60,526 bases of DNA from Solirubrobacterales bacterium (lineage in GTDB: Bacteria; Actinomycetota; Thermoleophilia; Solirubrobacterales; Solirubrobacteraceae). The position numbers and the translations under genes were made by a program. The notes under the pieces are model-generated. The model made no database searches. It was not told the origin of the DNA and saw only the letters and a list, made by a program, of their open reading frames with translations. This document shows positions 49,153-60,526 of the stretch, piece by piece (position 1 is the first letter of the stretch; each line of letters begins with the position of its first letter). The stretch is taken from NCBI GenBank assembly GCA_027451345.1, contig DAIDJO010000059.1:1-60526 (forward strand), given 5' to 3'.

Positions 49153-50997
49153 TCAGCCGTGCACGCGCAGGCGGACCAGGTACAGCTTCGAACCGATCTG
49201 CACGCCGACGTTCCAGTACTGGAAGTTGATCAGGTTCGGGGTGATGTTGAAGAGCACGTACCAGCGCGGGATGCCGTTTACCGAGCCGTCGGGGAAGAGC
49301 GCGGTCGTGCCGTTGCCGGGGAGGTTCGGCGCGACGGCCGCATCGACGTAGAAGGGGTGCTCGGGGCTGACCACCGTGAGGCGATAGGTGTCGGTGATAC
49401 GGACGTTGAAGTGGCCACCGGTGGTGCTCACCGGGGAGACCTGGATGATCGGCACCGCCGCGTCGGGGGCGAAGAACGAGTGCCCGGCCGTGACGACCAC
49501 GGTGTGCGGGTGCGGGTAGTACGCCGTGACCCGGATCTTGTCGCGCACGACCCGGAAGTAGGTGCCGGCGCAGGTGTTCTCGGTGTACCACTTGGTGCCG
49601 AGCACGGCGGCCGCGCCACCCGAGCCCTTCGTCGTGAAGCTGCCGTGCGCGTTGGCCCAGAGGCTCTGGAGCTTCTTGCCCTTCGGCTTGGCGTTGCCCT
49701 TCGCCGTCCCCTTGCCCTTGGCCCTGCCCTTCGCCTTGGCCACCGTGGCGGTGGCGCTCGCGACCGAGGCCACGGCACCCCGCGCGCTCACGGCCCGCGA
49801 GGCGATGCCGACGGCGCTGTTCGGTCCCCCGACCGTGACCGGGCAGTACTGGGCGCCGGGTCCGCCCGACAGGGTCGCCGTCGTCGCGCCCGTGGAGCGG
49901 TCCTGGTGCAGCTCGAACCGGCCGTCGTAGAAGACGCCCGACTCGTAGCTTCCGTGGGGCAGCGCCAGCGTCATCTGGACCGATCCGTGGCTCGCGTCGA
50001 TCTCGGACCCGTTCGGAACCTGGGCGCCCACGGCGACGCGGCGGAAGGTGTGCTGACCGGTCACCCGCACCCGCACGTCACCGGTCACCGGCGTGATGTC
50101 GACGTTCTTGCCCAGGACGGGGGCCGGCAGGCCGCCGTCGTTGGACTCGAAGCTGCCGTTCACCGGCGGGGTGACCGTCGCGTTCGTCGGTTGGGTGCCC
50201 GCGATCGTCGCCCGCACCCGTGGGCGGACGGTCGCGGAGGCGACACCGCCGCCGACGCGCCAGGTGGTGAGCGCGATGCGCGGCGTGTTCCGGCCGACGA
50301 TGTGGCCGTCGACGCGCAGGTGGGTGAAGACCATCGGCGCCCACGGCACGGGGCCGCGCACGGCGTTCGGCCCGCCGGTCGGCGAGTAGAGGTTGATCAG
50401 GGCCGCCCAGCCGTTCAGATACGGCCGGCCGAACTGGTTGCCGAACAGCTCAAAGGCGCCGGCCGCCCACCCGAGGTTCGGGTTCAGGGCCGGCGCGCGG
50501 AGGGAGCGGGTCTGGCGGGTGTTCAGGTCGACGATCCGCAGCCTGAGGCCGCGGCCGACGCGCCACACCGTGACCTGCAGCGGGTCGCCCGGAGCGATCC
50601 GGAAGTGCGCGGGCCGGAAGCGCAGGTACCCGGTGTTGGTGTTGCTGAAGATGAACTCCGGCGTGTAGACGGGCTGGTTGCCCCGGCAGAAGCTGTAGTA
50701 GCCGGCGAAGTCGAAGGCCTGCACCGCCGAGTTGCGGCGGCGGTACCGGCCGAGCAGCTCGACGCCGGACCGCTGGCCGGCGTACTGGCGCCGCCCCACG
50801 GCGCCACAGTAGATCGCGGAGACCGTGACGGTGGCGGACACCGAACGGGAGGGTGTGCGCGAATGGACGGTCGCAGCCCGGCCGCCGACGAACGGACCGC
50901 TGCCGCTCGCGGAGGCGACGGAGACGAGCCCGACGACCCCAGCGCTCAGCGCAGCAACGACCCGTCTGAGGTTGCGCCCGCCCACCCCGATCTCCAT
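49153..50997 (-). CDS. Secreted multi-module protein with FecR-like domain
   Basis: A 614-residue exported protein with a signal peptide (residues 1 to about 31). Four regions can be seen. Residues about 55-250 are all-beta and recall the lectin-like G1 peptidase fold (FRIAPGDPLQVTVWRVG, WAAGAFELFGN), with catalytic residues not evident. About 290-370 is a FecR-like module (PVLGKNVDITPVTGDVRV, VAVGAQVPNGSEIDASHGSV). After a Lys/Gly/Ala linker (420-442), about 445-510 holds a second small beta module (LWANAHGSFTTKG, VLGTKWYTENTCAGTYFRV). A C-terminal beta domain ends the protein. The middle modules resemble ones I associate with secreted Thermoleophilia proteins. Function unknown; surface binding or adhesion is plausible. 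Divergent from greA. Confidence 0.7.
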   Translation of the reverse strand: MEIGVGGRNLRRVVAALSAGVVGLVSVASASGSGPFVGGRAATVHSRTPSRSVSATVTVSAIYCGAVGRRQYAGQRSGVELLGRYRRRNSAVQAFDFAGYYSFCRGNQPVYTPEFIFSNTNTGYLRFRPAHFRIAPGDPLQVTVWRVGRGLRLRIVDLNTRQTRSLRAPALNPNLGWAAGAFELFGNQFGRPYLNGWAALINLYSPTGGPNAVRGPVPWAPMVFTHLRVDGHIVGRNTPRIALTTWRVGGGVASATVRPRVRATIAGTQPTNATVTPPVNGSFESNDGGLPAPVLGKNVDITPVTGDVRVRVTGQHTFRRVAVGAQVPNGSEIDASHGSVQMTLALPHGSYESGVFYDGRFELHQDRSTGATTATLSGGPGAQYCPVTVGGPNSAVGIASRAVSARGAVASVASATATVAKAKGRAKGKGTAKGNAKPKGKKLQSLWANAHGSFTTKGSGGAAAVLGTKWYTENTCAGTYFRVVRDKIRVTAYYPHPHTVVVTAGHSFFAPDAAVPIIQVSPVSTTGGHFNVRITDTYRLTVVSPEHPFYVDAAVAPNLPGNGTTALFPDGSVNGIPRWYVLFNITPNLINFQYWNVGVQIGSKLYLVRLRVHG

Positions 50998-51039
50998 GAG
51001 CGCGGCACTCTACCGCGTTTTGGTCGGCTGGCGAGAATT

Positions 51040-51060
51040 TTGCTCACGTAAACCGAGCAA
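51040..51060. promoter_or_regulatory. Inverted repeat in the divergent gap before greA
   Basis: TTGCTC and GAGCAA form a perfect six-base inverted repeat with a nine-base spacer, inside the most AT-rich part of the gap between the secreted protein gene and greA. It could be a regulator site or part of overlapping promoters. No complete -35/-10 pair could be fixed. Confidence 0.35.
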
Positions 51061-51124
51061 TCACCCTTGAGCTAAGGTCGTGCCCGGCGCGCCGAGCCGG
51101 CGGCCGTGGAACGGTTGGAGGACC

Positions 51125-51589
51125 ATGGACACCATCGAGATGACGGCGGAGGAGCTCCGGCGCCTGCAGGAGGAGCTGGGCGAGCTCGAGAGCAGCGGGC
51201 GGGCGGGGATCGCCGCGCGGATCAAGACGGCTCGTGAGTGGGGCGACCTGAAGGAGAACGGCGAGTATCACGCCGCCAAGGAGGCGCAGGCCCACCTGGA
51301 GACGCGCATCCTCCGGCTGCGCGAGCAGGTGCGCGCGGCGGTGGTGGTGGAGGCGGCGAGCAGCGGCGATGCCGTGCGTCACGGAGCCACGGTCGAGGTG
51401 ACCGACCTCGGCGCCGGCGCCACCCAGAGCTTCCGCATCGTCTCGCCGAACGAGGCCAGGCCGCGCGAGGGGCTGATCTCGTCGAGTTCCCCGGTCGCTC
51501 AGGCGCTGCTCGGGCACGGCCTGGGCGACGAGGTCGAGATCCCGATCCCCGCCGGCGTGCGCCGGCTGCGGATCGAGGCGATCAGGTAG
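51125..51589 (+). CDS. greA: Transcription elongation factor GreA
   Basis: A 154-residue factor that rescues backtracked RNA polymerase by stimulating cleavage of the nascent RNA. The N-terminal coiled coil carries the catalytic acidic tip in the segment AREWGDLKENGEYHAAKEAQ (Asp/Glu pair). The C-terminal FKBP-like domain ends IPIPAGVRRLRIEAIR. Compared with E. coli GreA the C-terminal domain is somewhat divergent (SSSSPVAQALLGHGLGDEVEI matches the usual SP[I/V]..ALLG). GGAGG lies before the ATG. The gene leads a short rightward cluster with an SDR, an S4 protein and a transporter. Confidence 0.92.
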   Translation: MDTIEMTAEELRRLQEELGELESSGRAGIAARIKTAREWGDLKENGEYHAAKEAQAHLETRILRLREQVRAAVVVEAASSGDAVRHGATVEVTDLGAGATQSFRIVSPNEARPREGLISSSSPVAQALLGHGLGDEVEIPIPAGVRRLRIEAIR

Positions 51590-51610
51590 CCGCCGGCGGC
51601 GGAGGAGCGG

Positions 51611-52375
51611 ATGCGGATCGCGGGTGCGGCAGCCATCGTCTTCGGCGGAGCCTCCGGGCTCGGCGAGGCGACGGCGCGACGGTTGGCCGCGGAGGGTGCG
51701 TCGGTCACGGTGGCCGATCTGAACCTCGCCGGCGCCGAGCGGGTGGCGACGGAGATCGGGGGCGCCGCCCACGCTGCCGACGTCACCGATCCGGACGCGG
51801 TCGGCGCGGCGCTCGACGCCGCGGCGGGCTCGGCGTCGGACGGGTTGAGGATCTCCGTGTGCTGTGCCGGCGTCGGCTCGCCGGGGAGGCTCGTCGGTCG
51901 GGATGGGCCCACGCCGCTTCAGCACTTCGCGACCGTCATCAACGTCAACCTGCTCGGCACGATCAACGTGCTGCGCCTGGCGGCGGCGCGGATGGCGGCC
52001 AACGCACCCGACGCGGAGGGTGAGCGCGGGATCTGCGTCAACACGGCATCCATCGCGGCCTTTGACGGCCAGATCGGGCAGGTCGCCTACGCCGCCTCCA
52101 AGGGCGGTGTCGTCGGCCTCACGCTCCCCGCGGCGCGCGAGCTGGCACAGCGGGGCGTGCGCGTGATGACGATCGCCCCCGGCATCTTCGACACGCCGAT
52201 GCTCGCCGGCTTCTCCGATGAGGTCCGCGCCTCGCTGGCCGCGTCGATCCCCTTTCCCGCCCGGCTCGCGCGGCCGGCGGAGTACGCCGACCTCGTCGAG
52301 CACATCGTCACCAACCCGATGCTGAACGGCGAGGTGATCCGGCTGGACGGCGCCATCCGGATGCCTCCGCGCTGA
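51611..52375 (+). CDS. Short-chain dehydrogenase, 3-hydroxyacyl-CoA dehydrogenase type II-like
   Basis: A 254-residue SDR. The cofactor motif is [19 protein letters not shown] (TGxxxGxG type), followed by Asp in VADLNLAG favouring NAD. The catalytic residues are Ser in [11 protein letters not shown] and the YAASKGG pair (Tyr/Lys). The sequence between them, [28 protein letters not shown] in outline, closely matches human HSD17B10-type 3-hydroxyacyl-CoA dehydrogenases, and the C-terminus [17 protein letters not shown] also fits. GGAGGAG precedes the ATG, 21 bases after greA. A role in beta-oxidation of short or branched acyl-CoAs is likely. Confidence 0.87.
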
Positions 52376-52391
52376 GGCGCGGCTCGGGCCC

Positions 52392-52604
52392 ATGCAGGAG
52401 ATCAGGATCACCGGTGACACCATCCGGCTCGGCCAGCTGCTGAAGCTGGGCGGCGTCGTCGAGAGTGGCGCCGAGGGCAAGGACCTGCTCGCCGCCGGGG
52501 CGGTGCTCGTCAACGCCGGCGTCGAGACGCGGCGTGGCCGCCAGCTCCACGACGGGGACGTGGTCGAGGTCGGCGAGTGGGAGTTCCGGATCAGCGCGGG
52601 GTAG
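52392..52604 (+). CDS. S4 domain RNA-binding protein (YbcJ/RlbA-like)
   Basis: A 70-residue protein made of a single S4 domain. IRLGQLLKLGGVVESGAEGKDLLAAGAVLVNAG with GRQLHDGDVVEVGEWEF covers nearly the whole chain, matching the small YbcJ/YaaA group. It probably binds structured RNA near ribosomes; its precise role is unknown. It starts 16 bases after the SDR stop and is likely co-transcribed. Confidence 0.85.
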   Translation: MQEIRITGDTIRLGQLLKLGGVVESGAEGKDLLAAGAVLVNAGVETRRGRQLHDGDVVEVGEWEFRISAG

Positions 52605-52636
52605 GGCCCGGCGCGCCATCCTAGGATCGGTCCGGC

Positions 52637-53593
52637 ATGTCTCCCCGCGACAACCTCCGCGCCGCGCTCGTCGCGATCATCTGGGGCGCCAACTTCGTCG
52701 TCATCGACGAGGGCCTGCGGGGCTTCCCGCCGTTCCTGCTGCTCTGCGCGCGGTTCCTCGTCGTGCTGATCCCGGCGATCTTCGTCGTGCCGCGCCCCGG
52801 CCCGTGGCGCACGATCCTGGAGGTTGGGTTGTTCCTCAGCCTCGGCCAGTTCGGCCTGCTCTACCTGTCGCTGCACCTCGGCATGCCGGCGGGGCTCGCC
52901 TCCCTGCTCGTGCAGGTCCAGGTGATCTTCTCGATCGCCATCTCCCGCCTGTTCCTGCACGAGCGCCCGACGCGGCGGCAGCTGCTCGGGGTCGGCATCG
53001 GCCTGGCCGGCCTGGCCGTGCTCATCGGCGGCCGCTCGAGCACGGCGGGACTGCTGCCCGTCGCCGTCATCGTCGCGGCCTGCCTCTCCTGGTCGGTCGG
53101 CAACGTGCTCTCGCGCCGCGCGCAGATCACGAGCGGGTTCGGCCTCACGGTCTGGTCGGGGATCGTCGTGCCAGTCCCGGCGCTCGGTCTCGCGCTGCTC
53201 GTCAACGGGCCGCACGCGGTCGGTCACGCCGTGGCGCACATCGGCTGGCTGACGGTGGCGAGCACGCTCTACACGGCTGTCGGCTGCTCGCTCTTCGGCT
53301 ACGGGGTGTGGAACTCCCTGCTCGCGCGCTACCCGGTCGGCTCGGTCGTGCCCTTCGCGCTCATAGTCCCGGCCGCCGGGATCGCCACGGCATGGATCGC
53401 CCTCGGCCAGGCCCCGAGCGTGACCGAGGTGATCGGCGGGGCAATCCTGCTCGCCGGGATCGGCACTACGACGCTGCAGCGAGGAGACGCTCGCCGAGCC
53501 GCGAGTACCGCCGATCCGTGTCCGGCGTCCGCGCCGCTCGAGCCACCACGGCTCGACTCCCGACGATCACCGTCGCCAGCTTCGCCCGCGTGA
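52637..53593 (+). CDS. EamA/DMT family transporter
   Basis: A 318-residue membrane protein with ten predicted helices in two homologous EamA halves: residues about 5-130 (AIIWGANFVVIDEGL, FLLLCARFLVVLIPAIF) and about 140-285 (AACLSWSVGNVLSRRA, GGAILLAGIGTTTLQRG). The drug/metabolite transporter class exports amino acids, metabolites or toxins; substrate unknown. The last 40 residues after the tenth helix are Ser/Pro/Ala-rich and are read from DNA that is antisense to the end of recD2, giving a 128-bp overlap of the two genes. Confidence 0.87.
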   Translation: MSPRDNLRAALVAIIWGANFVVIDEGLRGFPPFLLLCARFLVVLIPAIFVVPRPGPWRTILEVGLFLSLGQFGLLYLSLHLGMPAGLASLLVQVQVIFSIAISRLFLHERPTRRQLLGVGIGLAGLAVLIGGRSSTAGLLPVAVIVAACLSWSVGNVLSRRAQITSGFGLTVWSGIVVPVPALGLALLVNGPHAVGHAVAHIGWLTVASTLYTAVGCSLFGYGVWNSLLARYPVGSVVPFALIVPAAGIATAWIALGQAPSVTEVIGGAILLAGIGTTTLQRGDARRAASTADPCPASAPLEPPRLDSRRSPSPASPA

Positions 53594-55610
53594 TCGCGGT
53601 GTAGAGCATCTCCCGGCGCAGGAAGAACGCCCCGGCCTGCTCGTGCGCGACGATCACGGCCACCGGCAGTTCGATCCCCTGGCCGCGGTGGACCGAGCAC
53701 GCGTACCCGAGCCGCAGGCTCTCCGCCTCCTCGGGCGGCAGCCGGAAGAGCTGCTCGTCGCTGCGCAGCAGGAGCGCCGCCTCATCGCCCTCACCGCCGG
53801 GGATCTCGTCCTCGAGGTAGAGGACCGTCCCGTTCATCAACCCCTTCTCGTGCAGGTTGCGCCCGGTCATCATCAGCTTGTCGCCGGTGCGCAGGCGCCC
53901 CCCGCCGACGGGCCGCCCGGTCCCGTTCAGAGCCTCCCGCAGGGCCCGATTCAGCGCGTCGATCCCGAGCTCCCCCTTGTAGACGGGGGCGAAGACCTGG
54001 ATGTCCTCCACCGGGTTGACCCCGTAGTGGGCGGGCAGGCGCGTGCTGACGAGGTCCACGATGAGCTCGAGCGCCTCACGCGCGCTCGCCCGCTCCATCA
54101 GGAAGAGGTCGTGCCGCATCCCCTCCGCCGGTCGGAACTCGGGCGCCTCGCCGCGGCGGATGGCGTGGGCGCCCTGCACGATCATGCTGCCGGCCGCCTG
54201 GCGGAAGATGTGCTGCAGCCGCGCCGTCGGGACGACGTCGGAGGCGACGAGGTCGGCGAACGGCTTCCCGGCCCCGACCGGGGCGAGCTGGTCGGCGTCG
54301 CCGACCAGCACCACGTGGGCGGTGGGCGGGACGGCTCGCAACAGGGTCACCATCAGTTCGAGGTTCGCCATCGAGGATTCGTCGACGATCAGCAGGTCGT
54401 ACGGGAGCGGGTCCTCCTCGTCGTGCTCGGGGAGCTCGCCGGGCACCCAGCCGAGCGCCGAGTGGACCGTCTTGGCGTCGACCCCGCTGGCCTCGGTCAT
54501 GCGTCGCGCCGCGCGCCCGGTGGGGGCGACGAGCAGGACGCGAGCGTGCTGGGCCTGTGCGACCGTGGCGATCGTGCGGATCGAGGCGGTCTTCCCCGTC
54601 CCGGGCCCGCCGGTGATCACGGACAGGCGATGGGCGAAGGCGGCCCGCACGCCGTCGGCCTGCTCGGCGGTGAGGGTGAGCCCGCCCGCCTCGAGCGCCA
54701 CCTCGTCGACCTCCCGGAGCCGTCCGGTCGGTGCGCCCGCCGAGAGCATGTCGAGCACCCGCTCGCCCAGCTCCTGCTCGAGCTGCCAGGTCGACGTGCG
54801 GTAGATCCAGTCGCCGTCGTGCACGAGGTCGCCCTCCTGGACGAGCTGCTCGAGCGATTCCTCGTCGGGGAGCTCCCCGAGCAGGTCCCGGGCGGCGGCG
54901 AGCAGCTGTCCGACGGGCAGGCACGTGCTCCCCGCCCGTCCCTCAGCCTCCGAGAGCGCGTAGATGAGCGCGGCCGCCGCCCGGCCCGGGATCGCCTCGA
55001 CCGACTCGGCGTGGGCCCGCGCGATCCGGTCGGCGACCCGGAAACCGACGCCGAAGAGGCGCGTGAGCTCGTACGGGTTCTCGGCGATCACCCGGTGCGC
55101 CGTGTTCGGGTACTCATCGCTGATGCGCTTGGCCAGGTAGGCGAGCCCGTGCGGCGCCAGGAGCAGGTGCAGCCGCCGGATCGTCCGCAGCTCGTTCCAG
55201 GAGGCGGCCGCCTCCTGCGCGCGAAACGGGTTCAGCCCCACGCGTCGGAACGCGGCGGCGGGCTCCTCGTCGATCGCGTCGAGGACACGCTCGGTCCCGT
55301 AGCGGTCGATCAGCTTCTTCGCACGGGCGTCGCCGATGTTGCGGATGCGACGCAGGTAGGAGATGAGCGCGGTTCGGTCCTCCGGAGGTAGGGGCCGGGC
55401 GGCGCTCACCTGCACCTGTTCACCGAAGCGGCTGTCCGTCACCCGGACGCCCGTGACCTCTGCCCGCTCGCCGATCTCGAGGTGCGCGAGCGGTCCCACG
55501 AGGACCACCGGCTCGTCCGACGCGTCGGCATCGAGCACGGCGAAGCCATTCTCGGGGTTGGCGAATCGCTGGCGACGGATCGTCACCTCGCGGTCGAAGG
55601 GCTCAGACAT
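53466..55610 (-). CDS. recD2: RecD2-type DNA helicase
   Basis: A 714-residue superfamily 1B helicase that unwinds DNA 5' to 3' and aids repair or fork maintenance independent of RecBC. The N-terminal part has an OB-like strand region and helix-hairpin-helix repeats (RRIRNIGDARAKKLIDRYG). Motor motifs are GGPGTGKT (Walker A), DLLIVDESSM (Walker B), VLVGDADQLAPVGAGKPF, LQHIFRQAAGSMI and near the end YACSVHRGQGIE with YTAITRAK. This long-N-terminus layout distinguishes RecD2 from the RecD subunit. ATG at 55610 (MSEPFDREVTI) is chosen; there is no clear ribosome site, so a leaderless or weak start is possible. The 3' end overlaps the convergent transporter gene. Confidence 0.92.
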   Translation of the reverse strand: MSEPFDREVTIRRQRFANPENGFAVLDADASDEPVVLVGPLAHLEIGERAEVTGVRVTDSRFGEQVQVSAARPLPPEDRTALISYLRRIRNIGDARAKKLIDRYGTERVLDAIDEEPAAAFRRVGLNPFRAQEAAASWNELRTIRRLHLLLAPHGLAYLAKRISDEYPNTAHRVIAENPYELTRLFGVGFRVADRIARAHAESVEAIPGRAAAALIYALSEAEGRAGSTCLPVGQLLAAARDLLGELPDEESLEQLVQEGDLVHDGDWIYRTSTWQLEQELGERVLDMLSAGAPTGRLREVDEVALEAGGLTLTAEQADGVRAAFAHRLSVITGGPGTGKTASIRTIATVAQAQHARVLLVAPTGRAARRMTEASGVDAKTVHSALGWVPGELPEHDEEDPLPYDLLIVDESSMANLELMVTLLRAVPPTAHVVLVGDADQLAPVGAGKPFADLVASDVVPTARLQHIFRQAAGSMIVQGAHAIRRGEAPEFRPAEGMRHDLFLMERASAREALELIVDLVSTRLPAHYGVNPVEDIQVFAPVYKGELGIDALNRALREALNGTGRPVGGGRLRTGDKLMMTGRNLHEKGLMNGTVLYLEDEIPGGEGDEAALLLRSDEQLFRLPPEEAESLRLGYACSVHRGQGIELPVAVIVAHEQAGAFFLRREMLYTAITRAKLATVIVGSRAVVARAARTPDTDRRYSRLGERLLAAAS

Positions 55611-55696
55611 GAGGATGAAATTAGACGCGAGGTAGGCGCGAGCACCCGATTTGTGCCGAAAATGACACCAGTGCACCGTCGCTCCCCTCCCCGCAC

Positions 55697-56410
55697 ATGA
55701 TCCGCCATGTCCTCGCCATGCACGTGCCCGTCTGGGGGCGCGCGCTCAACCTGCCGCTCAACCTCGAGGATCTGGCCGCCTCGGGGTTCGCCGCGTCGTC
55801 CCGCGACGGCGTGGCACTGCAGGGGGCCAGCGGGCCACCTGCAGTGGCGATCACCTTCGACGACGGGCCCCATCCGGAGGGCACGCCGAGAATCCTCGAG
55901 GTGCTCGCCGAGTTCGACGTCCGGGCGACCTTCTTCGTCGTCGGCGAGCAGGTGGCCAAACGCCCGGCGCTCACCCGGCTGATCCTCGATCAGGGGCACG
56001 TCATCGGCCTGCACGGCCACCAACATCGCCCGCACCCGCTGCGTCGGGCCGCGGACATGGACGCGGACTTCGCCCGCGGCCTGGCGGCGATCGAGGACGC
56101 CACCGGGAGCACGCCGCGGCTGCACCGGCCGCCGTTCGGGATCTACAGCCCGACCAGCCTCCGGCTCGCACGGGAGCGTGGCCTCCAGCCGCTGCTGTGG
56201 TCCAAGTGGGGGCGCGACTGGCGCAAGATGGCGACCCCGGAGGAGATCACCGCCCGCGTCGTCACCGGCATCAGGGCCGGGGACGTCGTCCTGCTCCACG
56301 ACGCCGACTATTACAGCGCCCGCTGCTCCCACCGTCGGACCGCCGCCGCGCTACCGACGATCCTGAAGCTGGTGGGGTCCGCGGGATTCGGTACCGTGGC
56401 GTACGCCTAA
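55697..56410 (+). CDS. Polysaccharide deacetylase (carbohydrate esterase 4)
   Basis: A 237-residue NodB-type deacetylase. AITFDDGPHPEGTP (51-64) supplies the catalytic base Asp55 and metal-binding Asp56. His106 and His110 in GLHGHQHRPH complete the metal site. RPPFGIYSP is motif 3, and VVLLHDAD is the end motif with the catalytic His. There is no signal peptide, so it may act on a cytoplasmic or membrane-face precursor, removing N-acetyl groups from an amino sugar. It precedes a sugar aminotransferase and the fused epimerase-glycosyltransferase on the same strand. Confidence 0.88.
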   Translation: MIRHVLAMHVPVWGRALNLPLNLEDLAASGFAASSRDGVALQGASGPPAVAITFDDGPHPEGTPRILEVLAEFDVRATFFVVGEQVAKRPALTRLILDQGHVIGLHGHQHRPHPLRRAADMDADFARGLAAIEDATGSTPRLHRPPFGIYSPTSLRLARERGLQPLLWSKWGRDWRKMATPEEITARVVTGIRAGDVVLLHDADYYSARCSHRRTAAALPTILKLVGSAGFGTVAYA

Positions 56411-56542
56411 CCGAGGGCTAACGCAGTTAAGCTGAGGCGAACACAGTGGCGTCCCCAAGGGCCGGCCATCCGCGGGGGCGCCCGGAGCGCGCCCACCACG
56501 GCGCGGAACGGTGGCACCCGATGAGGACGGCGTGCAGGATTC
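56411..56542. other. 132-bp gap inside the glycoconjugate cluster
   Basis: Contains an AT-richer start (GCTAACGCAGTTAAGCTGAG) that could hold a promoter for the aminotransferase, then a GC-rich segment. No ORF, hairpin with T-run, or known RNA motif is recognisable. Confidence 0.35.
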
Positions 56543-57592
56543 ATGACGACTTTCCCTGAAGAGACCAGAAGCATGCCTGAGTACGGGCGCTTCGCGATCG
56601 GGTTCGACCAGCGCGACCGCGCGCGGCTGCACGCGCTGATCGACGAGGTGCTCGACTCGAACCGGTGGTCGGAGGGCGACATGACGGCTCGCTTCGAGCA
56701 CGCCTGGGAGGCGTGGAACGGGCTCCCCGCGGTGGCGACGTCGAGCTGGTCGGGAGCGGCGCTCGCCGCGCTGCACTTCGTCGGCGTCGCGGGTGAGACC
56801 GTGCTCTGCCCGTCCAACACGTTCATGGCGACCCCGCTGGCCGCGATTCGGGCCGGCGCCGAGGTCCAGTTCGTCGACTGCAACCGCGAGGACCTCTGCA
56901 TGTCGTTCGCCGACTTCGAACGCAGGGCGCACGAGCATCGGCCCCGGGCCGCGTTCCTGGTTCACATCGGCGGACACATCGCGTTCGACTCCGAGCGGAT
57001 CGCGGCGTACTGCGCCGAGCACGGGATCTTCCTGATCGAGGACTGCGCACACGCGCACGGCGCCTCCTGGCACGGGCGTCGGCCCGGCACCTATGGGGAC
57101 GCGGGTGTGTACTCGATGTATGCGACCAAGACGGTCTCCACCGGCGAGGGCGGGGTCCTCGTGTCGGGGCGCCCCGAGGTGCTCGAGTTCGCTCGCGGCT
57201 TCCGGAACTACGGCAAGCCGACCCACGACGTCCAGGGCCTGAACTTCCGGATGAGCGAGTTCACAGCCGCCCTCGGCCTGATCCAGGTCGAGCGCCTGCC
57301 GGAGATCGTCGCCTGGAAGAACGAGGTGGCGTCGGCGTTCCTGGACCCGCAGTTCGCCGGCTCCCGGCTCGAGCTCCCGGAGGGCATGGTCTCCGGCCGG
57401 TACAAGTACATCGTGTTCGATTGGCTGGAGCGTTCGACCGGCCGCGTCTACGAAGAGCCGTGCCATCGCATCCTCGGTCACCCGGTCGACCTGCCCAACA
57501 CCGACTGGGTCGCCCGCCACCACTCCTGCCCCCCGCTCTACTACCGGCCGCTGGACGCGCGGGACGAGTTCGGCTCGGAGGACGCGGCATGA
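56543..57592 (+). CDS. DegT/DnrJ/EryC1/StrS-family PLP aminotransferase
   Basis: A 349-residue sugar aminotransferase-like enzyme. The PLP lysine is Lys196 in SMYATKTVSTGEGG, and Asp167 in IEDCAHAHGAS contacts the pyridine nitrogen. The N-terminal CPSNTFMATPLAAIRAGAEVQFVDCN is the typical substrate/PLP loop. RNYGKPTHDVQGLNFRMSEFTAALGLIQ is the family C-terminal landmark. It should transfer an amino group to a keto sugar nucleotide. The stop overlaps the start of the downstream fusion gene as ATGA, so the pair is translationally coupled and probably acts in one pathway. The C-terminus is shorter than in most relatives. Confidence 0.9.
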   Translation: MTTFPEETRSMPEYGRFAIGFDQRDRARLHALIDEVLDSNRWSEGDMTARFEHAWEAWNGLPAVATSSWSGAALAALHFVGVAGETVLCPSNTFMATPLAAIRAGAEVQFVDCNREDLCMSFADFERRAHEHRPRAAFLVHIGGHIAFDSERIAAYCAEHGIFLIEDCAHAHGASWHGRRPGTYGDAGVYSMYATKTVSTGEGGVLVSGRPEVLEFARGFRNYGKPTHDVQGLNFRMSEFTAALGLIQVERLPEIVAWKNEVASAFLDPQFAGSRLELPEGMVSGRYKYIVFDWLERSTGRVYEEPCHRILGHPVDLPNTDWVARHHSCPPLYYRPLDARDEFGSEDAA

Positions 57593-60444
57593 GAGTGCTC
57601 GTGACCGGCGGCGCGGGCTTCATCGGCTCCCATGTCGTCGACCGGCTGCGCGAGCACGGCCACGAGCCCGTGATCTTCGACCTGCGCCCATCGCCATGGC
57701 CCGAGCATGCCGGGGTCGACACGGTGATCGGCCAGGTGACCGACGCGGACGCCGTCGCCGCGGCGCTCGCGGGGTGCGACGCCGTGGCTCATCTCGCCGC
57801 GGTGGCCGACGTCAATGACGTCCAGGCCGAGCCGCACGACGCCGAGCGGGTCAACGCTCGAGGGACCGCGGCGGTGCTCGAGGGCGCGCGGCGGGCCGGC
57901 GTCCGGCGGGTCGTCTACGCCTCGACGATCTGGGTGTACAGCGACACCGAGGAGACGACCGTCTCGGAGACGACGCTGCTGCCGCCGCCCGCGCACCTCT
58001 ACACCGCCACGAAGCTCGCCGGCGAGCTCTACTGCAAGTCCTACCAGGAGCTCTACGGCATCAACTGCACGATCCTGCGCTTCGGGATCCCCTACGGGCC
58101 CCGCGCACGCGAGGCGGCGGTCATTCCCGCGTTCGTCAGCCGGGCCCTGGCGGGTGAGCCGATCACGCTGAGCGGCGACGGGCTGCAGTCGCGCCGCTTC
58201 GTCTACGTGGAGGACCTGGCCGAGGGCGTCGTGGCCGGGCTCGGCGACATCGCCGAGAACCGCGTGTACAACCTCTCCAGCGACGAGGACGTGACGATCA
58301 GGGAGATCGCCGAGCTCGTGCGGGAGATCGTCGGCGACACGGAGATCGTCTTCGGGCCCGCCCGCCCCGGCGACCTCGGCTCGAAGATCGTCCTGTCGGA
58401 CCGGGCACGCGAGGAACTCGGCTGGTCGGCCGCGACCCCGATCCGGGAGGGCATCCGCCGCTACGTCGCCTGGCGGCGCGAGCAGGCGGCCAGAGCCGGC
58501 GACCCCTCGACCGCCGCCGCGCCTGCCGGTCCCGGCGGACCTGCCGGCCCTGGGGGAGCCCTCGAGCCGGCGGCCCGGACCGCGCCCGACCCGGTGCGCG
58601 GAGGCAGCCTCGACCCGCTGTCGGCCCGGGGCGACGCCGATGAGCCCGAGGCCTGCCCGCGCAAGGTGCTGATCATCTCCGCGGACATCGGGGCGGGGCA
58701 CGACCTTCCGGCGCGCTCGATCGCCCGCGAGTTCAAGCGCGAGGATCCCGACGTGTTCGTGGCGGTCGTCAACGGCCTGCCGGCGATGGGCCCGGTGGCC
58801 ACCGCGGTGCTGCGCGAGAACTCGGCCTTCATGTTCCGCTGGGTCCCCTGGCTCTTCGATCTCCAGTACCGGCTGTTCATGGACGTTCCGCCGACGCGGT
58901 GGCTGGCGTCGAAGCTGCTCGTCGGCGCCGGCCGCCGCGGGCTGATGCGGCTGATCCGCGCCCACAACCCCGACCTGATCGTCTCCACCTACCCGGGAAC
59001 CACCCAGGTGCTCGGCGAGATGCGCCGCACCGGTCGGCTGAGGATCCCCGTGTACTCCTCGATCACCGACATCGCCGGTCTGCGCTACTGGGCGCATCCC
59101 GGGATCGATCTGCACATGGTCTCCCACCCGGAGTCGATCGAGGAGGTGGAGCGGATCGCCGGCCCCGGCAGCGTGCGGTGGTCGCGCCCGCCGACCTCCG
59201 ACGCCGTGCTCATGCCCCGGGGGCGTGAGGAGGCGAGGACGACGCTCGGGCTGCCCCAGGATCGGCCGGTGATCGCCGTGTCCGGGGGCGGCTGGGGGGT
59301 CGGTGACGTCGCCGGCGCCGTCGAGGTCGCGCTCGCCGTGGCGCAGGACGCCGAGGTGCTCTGCCTCTGCGGGCGCAATCAGCAGCTGCGCGAACGGGTC
59401 AGCGAGCGCTTCGCGGGCGACCCGCGCGTGCGGGTGCTCGGCTTCACCAACCGCATGGGGGAGATCCTCGCCGCCGCCAACCTCCTGGTCCACTCGAGCG
59501 TTGGGCTCACCGTGCTGGAGGCGATCATCCGCGGGTGTCCGGTGATCTCCTACGGCTTCGGCTACGGGCACGTGCGCGTCTCCAACCAGGCGCTCGAGCG
59601 CTTCGGGCTGGCCCAGGTGGCGAGCACGATCGACGAGCTCGGACCGGCCATCGAGCGTGCCCTGGCCGAGCGAGCCGAACCGAACATGGCGTTCGCCCAG
59701 CGCCCGACGAGCGCCGCCATGATCCTGAACAGCACCCGGCGCGTGGCGCCGCTGCCGGCCTGGCGCGTGCGCACCGTGCGCGCCGGTACCCGGGTGGTCG
59801 CCTCCGCCGGGGTGGTGCTCACCGCCTTCCTGTCGAGCGTCGCCTACGGGCTCGTCTCCTCGTTGGGCGGCGCCAGCCCGGTGACGACGGTGGCGACCCT
59901 GAAGCCGGACGTCGGCGTCATCGTCGACGCGAGCGCCCAGGCGGCGCCCGTGCTGGCCCGGGAGCTCCACCGTCGCAACATCCACGTCACCTTCGCGCTG
60001 ACGAGCTCGTCCACGTCCTCCGCGGACCAGCTGATCGACTACGGCGACGACACGCTGCCCCGGCTCACCGACAGCGGCCTGCTCGGCTGGGTGAAGACGA
60101 GAGGGGAGCTGCGCCGGCTCGAGCGCGAGCTCGCGCTCGGTGAGCTGCAGCACCGGTTCCGCTGGGGCCACCACTTCCTCTACACCTCGAACGGCCCGAG
60201 CCTGATGCAGGTGCTGCTCGGCAAGGGTGCCGGTGGGACCTTCGTCGAGGGCAGGGTGAAGCTGAGCCGGCTCGGTCAGCTCCCCCGAACCCTGCACAAG
60301 GGCTGGATCATCGAGGTCAAGATCAAGAATCCGGCGGCCGCGCGCCAGGAGGTCATCAGGCTCGCGCACGAGCTCCACCGCGACCATCTCGACGCGGTGC
60401 CGCTCTCGCCGCTGATCAAGAACTCCCCCTCGAACCTGGTCTAG
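57589..60444 (+). CDS. Three-part fusion: NAD-dependent sugar epimerase + GT28/MGDG-synthase-like glycosyltransferase + membrane-linked C-terminal domain
   Basis: A single 951-residue frame. Residues 1-300 are an extended SDR epimerase/dehydratase: GGAGFIG (7-13), a YASTIWVY strand holding the catalytic Ser/Thr, YTATK (138-142) and RRFVYVEDLAEG. Residues 301-355 are a Pro/Gly/Ala linker. Residues 358-700 are a GT-B glycosyltransferase like MGDG synthase/MurG: ISADIGAGHDLPARSIAREF, SSITDIAGLRYW, VSGGGWGVGDVAGAVEVAL, and the donor-site stretch HSSVGLTVLEAIIRGCPVISYG. Residues about 733-760 form one membrane helix. The last 190 (DVGVIVDASAQAAPVLARELHRRNIHVTF...) recall a degenerate polysaccharide-deacetylase barrel lacking the TFDDGP motif. 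The protein could make an unusual NDP-sugar and attach it to a membrane lipid. Start overlaps the aminotransferase stop. Confidence 0.85.
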   Translation: MRVLVTGGAGFIGSHVVDRLREHGHEPVIFDLRPSPWPEHAGVDTVIGQVTDADAVAAALAGCDAVAHLAAVADVNDVQAEPHDAERVNARGTAAVLEGARRAGVRRVVYASTIWVYSDTEETTVSETTLLPPPAHLYTATKLAGELYCKSYQELYGINCTILRFGIPYGPRAREAAVIPAFVSRALAGEPITLSGDGLQSRRFVYVEDLAEGVVAGLGDIAENRVYNLSSDEDVTIREIAELVREIVGDTEIVFGPARPGDLGSKIVLSDRAREELGWSAATPIREGIRRYVAWRREQAARAGDPSTAAAPAGPGGPAGPGGALEPAARTAPDPVRGGSLDPLSARGDADEPEACPRKVLIISADIGAGHDLPARSIAREFKREDPDVFVAVVNGLPAMGPVATAVLRENSAFMFRWVPWLFDLQYRLFMDVPPTRWLASKLLVGAGRRGLMRLIRAHNPDLIVSTYPGTTQVLGEMRRTGRLRIPVYSSITDIAGLRYWAHPGIDLHMVSHPESIEEVERIAGPGSVRWSRPPTSDAVLMPRGREEARTTLGLPQDRPVIAVSGGGWGVGDVAGAVEVALAVAQDAEVLCLCGRNQQLRERVSERFAGDPRVRVLGFTNRMGEILAAANLLVHSSVGLTVLEAIIRGCPVISYGFGYGHVRVSNQALERFGLAQVASTIDELGPAIERALAERAEPNMAFAQRPTSAAMILNSTRRVAPLPAWRVRTVRAGTRVVASAGVVLTAFLSSVAYGLVSSLGGASPVTTVATLKPDVGVIVDASAQAAPVLARELHRRNIHVTFALTSSSTSSADQLIDYGDDTLPRLTDSGLLGWVKTRGELRRLERELALGELQHRFRWGHHFLYTSNGPSLMQVLLGKGAGGTFVEGRVKLSRLGQLPRTLHKGWIIEVKIKNPAAARQEVIRLAHELHRDHLDAVPLSPLIKNSPSNLV

Positions 60445-60526
60445 CCGTGCTCCCGGGCCACCGGCCCGCTGGAGATTTGCGCGCGCTTGCGACTTGTGGA
60501 CTCGGTCGAAGACGTCCTGAGTGGAG
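60445..60526. other. Sequence after the fusion gene to the window end
   Basis: 82 bases of non-coding sequence with a short GGGCC-ACC-GGCCC hairpin (about 60456-60468) soon after the stop that may end transcription. Nothing else is recognisable before the window edge. Confidence 0.35.

What the first reader, a model, noticed from the sequence alone, without database searches (positions are those of the whole stretch)
57589..60444. Epimerase-glycosyltransferase-membrane domain fusion in one polypeptide
One 951-residue frame joins a complete sugar-nucleotide epimerase, a complete GT-B glycosyltransferase of the MGDG-synthase/MurG kind, a membrane helix and a third domain resembling a catalytically dead polysaccharide deacetylase. 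I know of the parts separately but not of this order in one chain. It is coupled by ATGA to a sugar aminotransferase and preceded by an active-looking deacetylase. The set could make an amino-sugar donor and transfer it directly to a membrane lipid, with the epimerase channelling product to the transferase: a candidate uncharacterised glycolipid or surface-glycan pathway.
Basis: partly seen in the sequence, partly recalled or inferred. Interest (0 to 1): 0.72.

Follow-up and report, generated by a model that had tools for sequence, protein, structure and literature searches.

The report
Fused enzyme for amino-sugar lipids
A soil bacterium carries one long protein that joins a sugar-modifying enzyme, a sugar-to-lipid transferase and a membrane-anchored dead enzyme domain, and comparison with its relatives suggests that it belongs to an undescribed pathway for putting an amino sugar on a membrane lipid.

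Summary
One frame (57589-60444, 951 aa) joins an extended SDR, a GT-B transferase of the MGDG-synthase/UgtP kind, a membrane helix and a domain that folds like a CE4 deacetylase but lacks its catalytic residues. It is no assembly artefact: 22 of 28 genomes of the genus carry all parts in one frame. Elsewhere the parts are separate or fused in the same or other ways, mostly beside the same partners: DegT aminotransferase, CE4 deacetylase, often an EamA-like transporter. Relatives supply a natural experiment: one clade of four lacks this DegT. In three of them the SDR has decayed (two lost the Tyr-Lys pair, all three a subfamily Trp; dN/dS 0.33-0.40 against 0.05-0.11 in six DegT-bearing pairs) and in the fourth it is gone, while transferase and C-terminal domain persist. 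So SDR and DegT look like one unit that supplies an optional sugar. Best reading: an amino-sugar glycolipid pathway with the enzyme classes of Arn but another transferase family. Sugar, lipid and function are inferred. Direct SDR-to-transferase channelling is not supported. My searches found no description; new variant of a known kind.

The parts
57589..60444 (+). 951-aa fusion protein: SDR + GT-B + membrane helix + CE4-like pseudoenzyme domain
   Evidence: all parts in one frame in 22 of 28 genomes of the genus
57589..58494 (+). Extended SDR domain (residues 1-302): TGGAGFIGSH, AST-I-W115-VY, Y138-TAT-K142
   Evidence: PF01370 E 1.8e-54; closest solved structures are 4-epimerases, then UDP-glucuronate decarboxylases; W115 lies where the decarboxylase has Glu
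58495..58650 (+). Linker between SDR and transferase (about residues 303-354)
   Evidence: residues 309-354 under pLDDT 50; 0-76 residues between the matched domains in 33 fused frames, median 17, here 50
58651..59733 (+). GT-B transferase domain of the MGDG-synthase/UgtP kind (residues 355-715)
   Evidence: PF06925; PDB 9wde E 3.1e-19 and MGDG synthase 4wyi E 4.7e-19; His371 aligns with the His of the MGDG-synthase GGGH motif
59758..59829 (+). Membrane helix (residues 724-747), Arg-rich on the transferase side
   Evidence: more Lys+Arg in the 30 residues before than after the helix in 50 of 51 GT+CD proteins, equal in one
59881..60423 (+). C-terminal CE4/NodB-like domain (residues 765-945) without the catalytic residues, predicted to lie outside the cell
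   Evidence: AF2 + Foldseek; no conserved His-His-Asp metal set
56543..57592 (+). DegT/DnrJ/EryC1/StrS aminotransferase, 349 aa, short C-terminus, PLP lysine present (YATKTVSTGEGG)
   Evidence: PF01041 E 5.2e-60; alignment with solved aminotransferases
57589..57592 (+). ATGA overlap of the DegT stop and the fusion start
55697..56410 (+). CE4 polysaccharide deacetylase, 237 aa, catalytic motifs intact
   Evidence: PF01522 E 3.2e-31; Asp-Asp, His/His, Arg, Asp-Trp and His-Asp positions invariant in 33 aligned rows, the window's included

Best explanation
The fusion protein is the central enzyme of an amino-sugar glycolipid pathway of Solirubrobacterales. SDR and DegT are one unit: the SDR oxidises the ring of a nucleotide sugar and DegT aminates the keto-sugar (order and chemistry inferred from the families). 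The GT-B domain, on the cytoplasmic face, transfers the amino sugar to a membrane lipid, most likely diacylglycerol (inferred from the family). The neighbouring CE4 enzyme removes an acyl group from the lipid-linked sugar and, in many relatives, an EamA-like transporter moves the product outward (both inferred). The helix and the extracytoplasmic CE4-like domain anchor the transferase; the domain has lost catalysis and may bind the glycolipid or a partner. A core of transferase, deacetylase and transporter also occurs without SDR and DegT, so these supply a sugar variant rather than the core function.
For: Window plus 80 named loci (81; my own module profiles, over 80 bits, 60 for the CD): deacetylase found in 68, DegT in 46, EamA-like in 38, at least one of the three in 76; four of the other five have the transferase frame cut by a contig end. 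SDR directly downstream of DegT in 41 of 44 loci that hold both. Of 61 genomes 25 have this DegT: 23 with an SDR match, one (G004) with its SDR cut by a contig end, one (G021) with partial DegT and no match to the fusion; three genomes with an SDR match lack DegT, and these are the decayed ones. Decay: of 128 SDR columns invariant in 21 DegT-bearing fusions, 27, 11 and 19 are changed in the three fusions without DegT, against 4-6 of 119 GT columns and 0 of 13 CD columns. SDR dN/dS among those three 0.33-0.40, GT 0.11-0.15, CD 0.04-0.12; SDR 0.05-0.11 in six DegT-bearing pairs. The fourth member has no SDR. The four form one clade, 100/98. GT near UgtP and MGDG synthase. Deacetylase motifs intact. 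Helix orientation.
Against: No substrate, product or acceptor was tested. The loss of DegT with decay of the SDR is one clade, so one event, however many rows it holds. SDR dN/dS there is 0.33-0.40, not 1, and the pair window/L075 gives SDR 0.28 and GT 0.26; pairs with the fourth member, L058, give GT 0.20-0.21 and CD 0.34-0.43, less constrained than among the other three. L059 keeps Tyr and Lys. The absence of DegT in G020 rests on a 69% complete genome (its PDA and fusion are neighbours without a gap for it). W115 replaces the Glu of decarboxylases, so the SDR chemistry is open. The GT is far under the UgtP equivalog cut-off. The transporter label is weak: one of four proteins passes Pfam's EamA cut-off; no match at E <= 1e-15 in this genome and in 17 of 28 of the genus in all. 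A Solirubrobacter polar-lipid study does not use the word glycolipid at all (PMC10722151, passages), although Solirubrobacter soli has the five genes (L136).
Confidence: 0.5

Rival explanations
1. Same enzymes, other acceptor: the transferase puts the amino sugar on a polyprenyl phosphate or on a growing wall glycan, as MurG-like GT-B enzymes do, and the product is a wall decoration, not a free glycolipid.
For: PF04101 (GT28 C-terminal domain) also matches, E 0.0016, under its cut-off. A CE4 enzyme and an EamA-like transporter beside it also fit the making and flipping of a carrier-linked sugar.
Against: The N-terminal half matches the MGDG-synthase domain, and the two best solved matches are a diacylglycerol glucosyltransferase and MGDG synthase. 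No polymerase or ligase among the eight neighbours annotated (a small sample).
Confidence: 0.28
2. Hopanoid acceptor: the set makes an amino-sugar hopanoid, as the (recalled) HpnI/HpnK pair does.
For: 6 of 8 genomes tested carry a squalene-hopene cyclase over the family's cut-off, the window's genome included.
Against: No match in the one-contig genome G015, which has an intact fusion and DegT; only sub-cut-off matches in G231, which has all five parts as separate genes.
Confidence: 0.05
3. The SDR domain is a non-catalytic or regulatory appendage, and its neighbourhood with DegT is incidental.
For: In two relatives the SDR lost Tyr and Lys yet is still in frame with the transferase.
Against: W115, Tyr138 and Lys142 are invariant in 21 of 21 fusions with DegT, and SDR dN/dS is 0.05-0.11 in six DegT-bearing pairs.
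Confidence: 0.05
4. Channelling fusion as first proposed: the SDR is a 4-epimerase that hands its product straight to the transferase.
For: The closest solved relatives of the SDR are 4-epimerases. SDR and GT share one frame in 33 of 81 loci.
Against: Disordered linker; SDR fate follows DegT, not GT; in G049 the SDR is fused to the CD without the GT.
Confidence: 0.1

Closest known systems
UgtP / MGDG synthase (processive diacylglycerol glucosyltransferase and plant MGD1)
   Same: GT-B fold, MGDG_synth domain, conserved His in the N-terminal Gly-rich motif
   Different: Fused to an SDR before it and to a membrane helix with a CE4-like domain after it; far under the curated UgtP cut-off; donor and acceptor unknown
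Arn pathway (ArnA, ArnB, ArnC, ArnD, ArnE/ArnF; enzyme classes recalled, ArnD as a NodB-fold protein from passages of PMC10967932)
   Same: Same five enzyme classes: SDR, DegT aminotransferase, sugar-lipid transferase, NodB-fold deacylase, DMT-type transporter
   Different: Transferase is GT-B, not GT2; no formyltransferase domain in the proteins scanned; Trp where the decarboxylase Glu would be; no lipid A target expected in this phylum (recalled)
PelX and other UDP-sugar 4-epimerases (6wjb is recalled to be PelX; the record says only epimerase/dehydratase family)
   Same: Extended SDR fold, Ser/Thr position and Tyr-x3-Lys
   Different: Subfamily Trp115; tie to a DegT aminotransferase
CE4 pseudoenzyme BA3943 and other NodB-fold proteins
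   Same: Fold, and loss of catalytic residues
   Different: 12% identity; membrane-anchored at the end of a glycosyltransferase; own consensus with GD-x3-P, W-x2-T and GPS
HpnI/HpnK glucosaminyl-hopanoid pair (recalled)
   Same: Transferase plus deacetylase that put a free amino sugar on a membrane lipid
   Different: Other transferase family; no hopene cyclase over the cut-off in two genomes that have the set

Membership tests
MGDG synthase / UgtP family | MGDG_synth N-terminal domain over Pfam cut-off | tested here: met
   PF06925 40.5 bits, cut-off 25
MGDG synthase / UgtP family | NCBIfam diglucosyl diacylglycerol synthase equivalog cut-off | tested here: not met
   108 bits against 500: related, not that enzyme
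MGDG synthase / UgtP family | Diacylglycerol as acceptor | not testable with these tools
   needs an enzyme assay
Sugar-nucleotide 4-epimerase (extended SDR) | Gly-rich NAD motif, Ser/Thr, Tyr-x3-Lys | tested here: met
   TGGAGFIGSH, AST, Y138-x3-K142
Sugar-nucleotide 4-epimerase (extended SDR) | NCBIfam GalE equivalog cut-off | tested here: not met
   122 bits against 262.3
dTDP-glucose 4,6-dehydratase / UDP-glucuronate decarboxylase | Acidic residue(s) after the catalytic Thr (T-D-E, recalled; T-S-E, seen in 4lk3) | tested here: not met
   T-I-W instead; dehydratase equivalog 133.9 bits against a cut-off of 365.1
CE4 deacetylase: the C-terminal domain | NodB fold | tested here: met
   22 PDB matches at E <= 0.001, 21 of them named as CE4 family members, deacetylases or esterases
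CE4 deacetylase: the C-terminal domain | Motifs MT1-MT5 with two Asp and a His-His metal site (as in PMC10967932, passages) | tested here: not met
   No His column above 59% and one Asp column above 50% in 51 rows; read from the alignment, not from a superposition
CE4 deacetylase: the neighbour 55697-56410 | Motifs MT1-MT5 | tested here: met
   Invariant in 33 rows aligned of 65 available. A coarser pattern scan of all 68 matches, fragments included, found TFDDGP in 65 and [LI]HD in 66
DegT/DnrJ/EryC1/StrS aminotransferase | Domain over cut-off and PLP lysine | tested here: met
   204 bits, cut-off 19.8; lysine aligned with that of solved aminotransferases. Only profile positions 6-251 of 360 match
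Arn pathway | All five enzyme classes in one locus | tested here: met
   12 of 81 loci: 11 without the CD, one with it; the window itself lacks the transporter
Arn pathway | GT2 transferase ArnC and formyltransferase part of ArnA | tested here: not met
   Transferase is GT-B; no formyltransferase in the three window proteins scanned

The most novel reading that the evidence does not exclude
Solirubrobacterales have an independently assembled counterpart of the Arn pathway: a modular machine with a GT-B core that makes a cationic amino-sugar lipid in the cytoplasmic membrane of a bacterium without lipid A. Its sugar-making unit (SDR + DegT) is swapped in and out while the core stays, and the C-terminal domain is a pseudoenzyme recruited from a CE4 deacetylase, perhaps the pathway's own, as an extracytoplasmic lipid-sugar receptor.
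Probability: 0.2. Interest if true: 0.75.

Novelty: new variant of a known kind. Interest (0 to 1): 0.52.

Why it matters
If true, a little-studied group of soil actinobacteria makes a positively charged membrane glycolipid by a route that none of my paper searches found described, with the enzyme classes that Gram-negative bacteria use for aminoarabinose. Strains on record as isolates carry the genes: Conexibacter sp. DBS9H8 (fusion, DegT, deacetylase), Patulibacter medicamentivorans I11 and Solirubrobacter soli DSM 22325 (all five classes, separate genes), so lipid analysis can test it. The clade without DegT, which includes Conexibacter sp. S30A1, gives natural mutants: same transferase, no amino-sugar unit.

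Tried and rejected
Assembly artefact: rejected; the fusion recurs in independent assemblies, including the complete chromosome NZ_CP097128. Hopanoid acceptor: weakened. SDR as decarboxylase or 4,6-dehydratase: disfavoured by its active-site residues. Sequence homology of the C-terminal domain to the neighbour deacetylase: the profile comparison is collinear but weak (probability 6%, E 0.0063), and the profile has no confident PDB sequence match (best E 0.43), so only the fold supports it. Convergent change of the transferase after loss of DegT: S490A hints at it (A in 19 of 19 core-only rows and 3 of 4 rows of the clade without DegT, but also in 10 of 49 rows with SDR or DegT); not used. RNA families: none at gathering score in 50000-60526. 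Promoters: none in 55600-60526 by the sigma-70 scan, which need not fit this phylum. Plasmids: five records, four aligned over the SDR only and one over part of it. Phylum: matches at E <= 1e-60 in 3 of 149 genomes, all of the same class.

Literature (listings with titles and starts of abstracts): fusion of epimerase and glycosyltransferase (0 papers with all five terms; 2, on other matters by title); the gene set (0 with three of five terms); amino-sugar diacylglycerol (2,062 papers with two of three terms, 12 listed, none of those with 'glucosaminyl diacylglycerol'; 1, on fungi); Solirubrobacter polar lipids (23, 12 listed); the two isolates and Palsa-465 (1, one mention of Palsa-465); Arn (47, 8 listed); CE4 pseudoenzymes (3); PelX (31, 5 listed, no primary PelX paper among them). 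Passages were seen of PMC10722151 and PMC10967932; no paper was read whole. So 'undescribed' means not found by these searches of open-licence papers.
Full report
1. Frame 57589-60444 on the + strand encodes 951 residues. Pfam finds an extended SDR at residues 3-229 and an MGDG-synthase domain at 372-521, with group-1 matches just over, and a GT28 C-terminal match under, their cut-offs as far as residue 703. An AlphaFold2 model of the whole chain from a 32-row alignment has mean pLDDT 85.4; residues 309-354, the linker, are under 50, and pTM is 0.52, so the placement of the domains to each other is not known. A helix covers 724-747. The C-terminal part has no Pfam family over its cut-off. Modelled from 51 rows (mean pLDDT 82.6, core blocks over 90) it matches CE4 proteins in the PDB; the best match is a CE4 pseudoenzyme, E 5.4e-08, 12% identity. 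The alignment shows no conserved His-His-Asp metal set. In 50 of 51 GT+CD proteins more Lys/Arg precede the helix than follow it, in one as many; this puts the transferase inside and the CE4-like domain outside. The helix is only moderately hydrophobic: mean Kyte-Doolittle value at least 1.3 in 44 of 51, lowest 1.16.

2. The fusion is real and genus-wide. In 28 genomes of the genus (the window's included) one open frame spans query residues 1 to 946 or beyond in 22. Two more are cut by contig ends, one (G017) lacks the SDR, and three of 73-76% completeness had no match. The nearest named records are MAGs titled Solirubrobacterales, Solirubrobacteraceae or Actinomycetes and the complete chromosomes of Conexibacter sp. 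S30A1 and DBS9H8.

3. The parts are modules. In the window and 80 named loci (81) the GT sits in SDR+GT+CD (24, or 25 with L063, a fusion cut by its contig start), SDR+GT (9), GT+CD (27, L063 included) or alone (21). Beside or fused to it, by my own profiles and within at most 10 kb, a CE4 deacetylase was found in 68, DegT in 46 and an EamA-like transporter in 38; at least one of the three in 76; four of the other five have the transferase frame cut by a contig end. The label EamA-like rests on weak matches: one of four proteins passes Pfam's cut-off. The SDR+GT fusion is not confined to the genus: G229, of another family of the order, has it without the CD. In G049 the SDR is fused to the CD without the GT, and in G030 and G052 the SDR has, by eye, a hydrophobic tail instead. 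The one-contig genome G231 has all five as separate neighbours. The GT tree of 77 rows (four short rows of 81 left out, midpoint root) puts the SDR-fused GTs in one group of 39 rows (99/95) with five GT+CD rows: one is the SDR loss in the DegT-less clade, four are a clade in which SDR and GT+CD are adjacent genes with overlapping frames. Nineteen GT+CD rows with no SDR or DegT found at the locus form another group (100/100). Matches were found at E <= 1e-75 in 32 of 199 genomes of the class, and at E <= 1e-60 in 3 of 149 of the phylum, all within the class.

4. A natural experiment. In 61 genomes this DegT subfamily (E <= 1e-40) occurs in 25. Among the genomes of the genus with a complete or nearly complete locus, G012, G017, G020 and G024 lack it. 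They are one clade (100/98). G012, G017 and G024 keep other full-length DegT-family genes, so the loss is specific; G020 (69% complete) shows only weak ones. G017 has no SDR at the locus. In the other three the SDR is still in frame but has decayed. Of 128 SDR columns that never vary in 21 fusions with DegT, 27 (L057), 11 (L059) and 19 (L075) are changed, among them W115 in all three and Tyr138 and Lys142 in L057 and L075. In the GT 4-6 of 119 such columns are changed, in the CD none of 13 (L058 included). As a control, each DegT-bearing row held against the others shows 0-9 SDR and 0-3 GT changes, except the distant L089 with 20 and 13. dN/dS among the three is 0.33-0.40 for SDR, 0.11-0.15 for GT and 0.04-0.12 for CD; pairs of L058 with L057 and L075 give GT 0.20-0.21 and CD 0.34-0.43. 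In six DegT-bearing pairs SDR is 0.05-0.11, GT 0.09-0.18 and CD 0.14-0.60; the pair window/L075 gives SDR 0.28, GT 0.26, CD 0.44. In 41 of 44 loci that hold both genes, the SDR lies directly downstream of DegT, in the window with an ATGA overlap. I conclude that SDR and DegT act together and that the transferase does not need them. The limit of this: it is one clade, one event, and the ratios are well under 1.

5. Mechanism. Shown: the domains, their partners, co-loss, intact catalytic residues in the CE4 neighbour, PLP lysine in DegT and the conserved His in the GT. Inferred: the SDR makes a keto-sugar and DegT an amino sugar; the GT moves it to a lipid, probably diacylglycerol; the CE4 enzyme deacylates; the EamA-like protein exports. 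The SDR chemistry is open: its closest structures are 4-epimerases, then UDP-glucuronate decarboxylases, but Trp115 stands where the latter have Glu. The EamA-like gene has no match at E <= 1e-15 in this genome (85% complete) and in 17 of the genus's 28 in all; six of the 28 have a strong one, under 1e-40. In G006 it lies beside a second GT. Export is thus unexplained in the window's genus.

6. Comparison. The enzyme classes equal those of the Arn pathway (recalled; ArnD as a NodB-fold protein from passages of PMC10967932), but the transferase family differs and no formyltransferase was seen, so it may work like Arn and is not a member. Within the UgtP/MGDG-synthase family it passes the Pfam domain test and fails the UgtP equivalog cut-off. 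The hopanoid alternative is weakened because G015 has no cyclase match and G231 only sub-cut-off ones. [quoted passage not shown] that is mildly against a major amino-glycolipid in that genus, though the strain's genes were not compared here.

7. Verdict. A real, conserved, modular gene set for which my searches found no description: new variant of a known kind. The co-loss makes a clear prediction that strains on record as isolates can test.

Noticed in passing
L109 (record titled Bifidobacterium breve MAG) and L120 (record titled Chlamydiae bacterium): Both carry parts of this gene set and group with Conexibacter/Patulibacter or Solirubrobacterales rows in the GT tree; the records are probably mis-binned or mislabelled.
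   Followed up: no
G015:C1:3589831-3590760 (in L056): A second, stand-alone SDR, 73% identical to the window's SDR domain, in a genome that also has the fusion.
   Followed up: no
L043 7952-9643 (G049): SDR fused straight to the CE4-like domain, without the transferase.
   Followed up: partly
L159 7923-9919 (G006): A second transferase of the family beside an EamA-like gene in a genome that also has the fusion.
   Followed up: no
window 56543-57592: The DegT protein is short: only positions 6-251 of the 360-position Pfam profile match; its C-terminus looks conserved among relatives by eye.
   Followed up: no
window 53466-55676: RecD2-like helicase on the opposite strand; its cluster occurs in 11 of the 21 stretches whose genes were called (for the family).
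   Followed up: no
L053 13671-16016 (G023): A GH38 alpha-mannosidase near the set in one relative.
   Followed up: no
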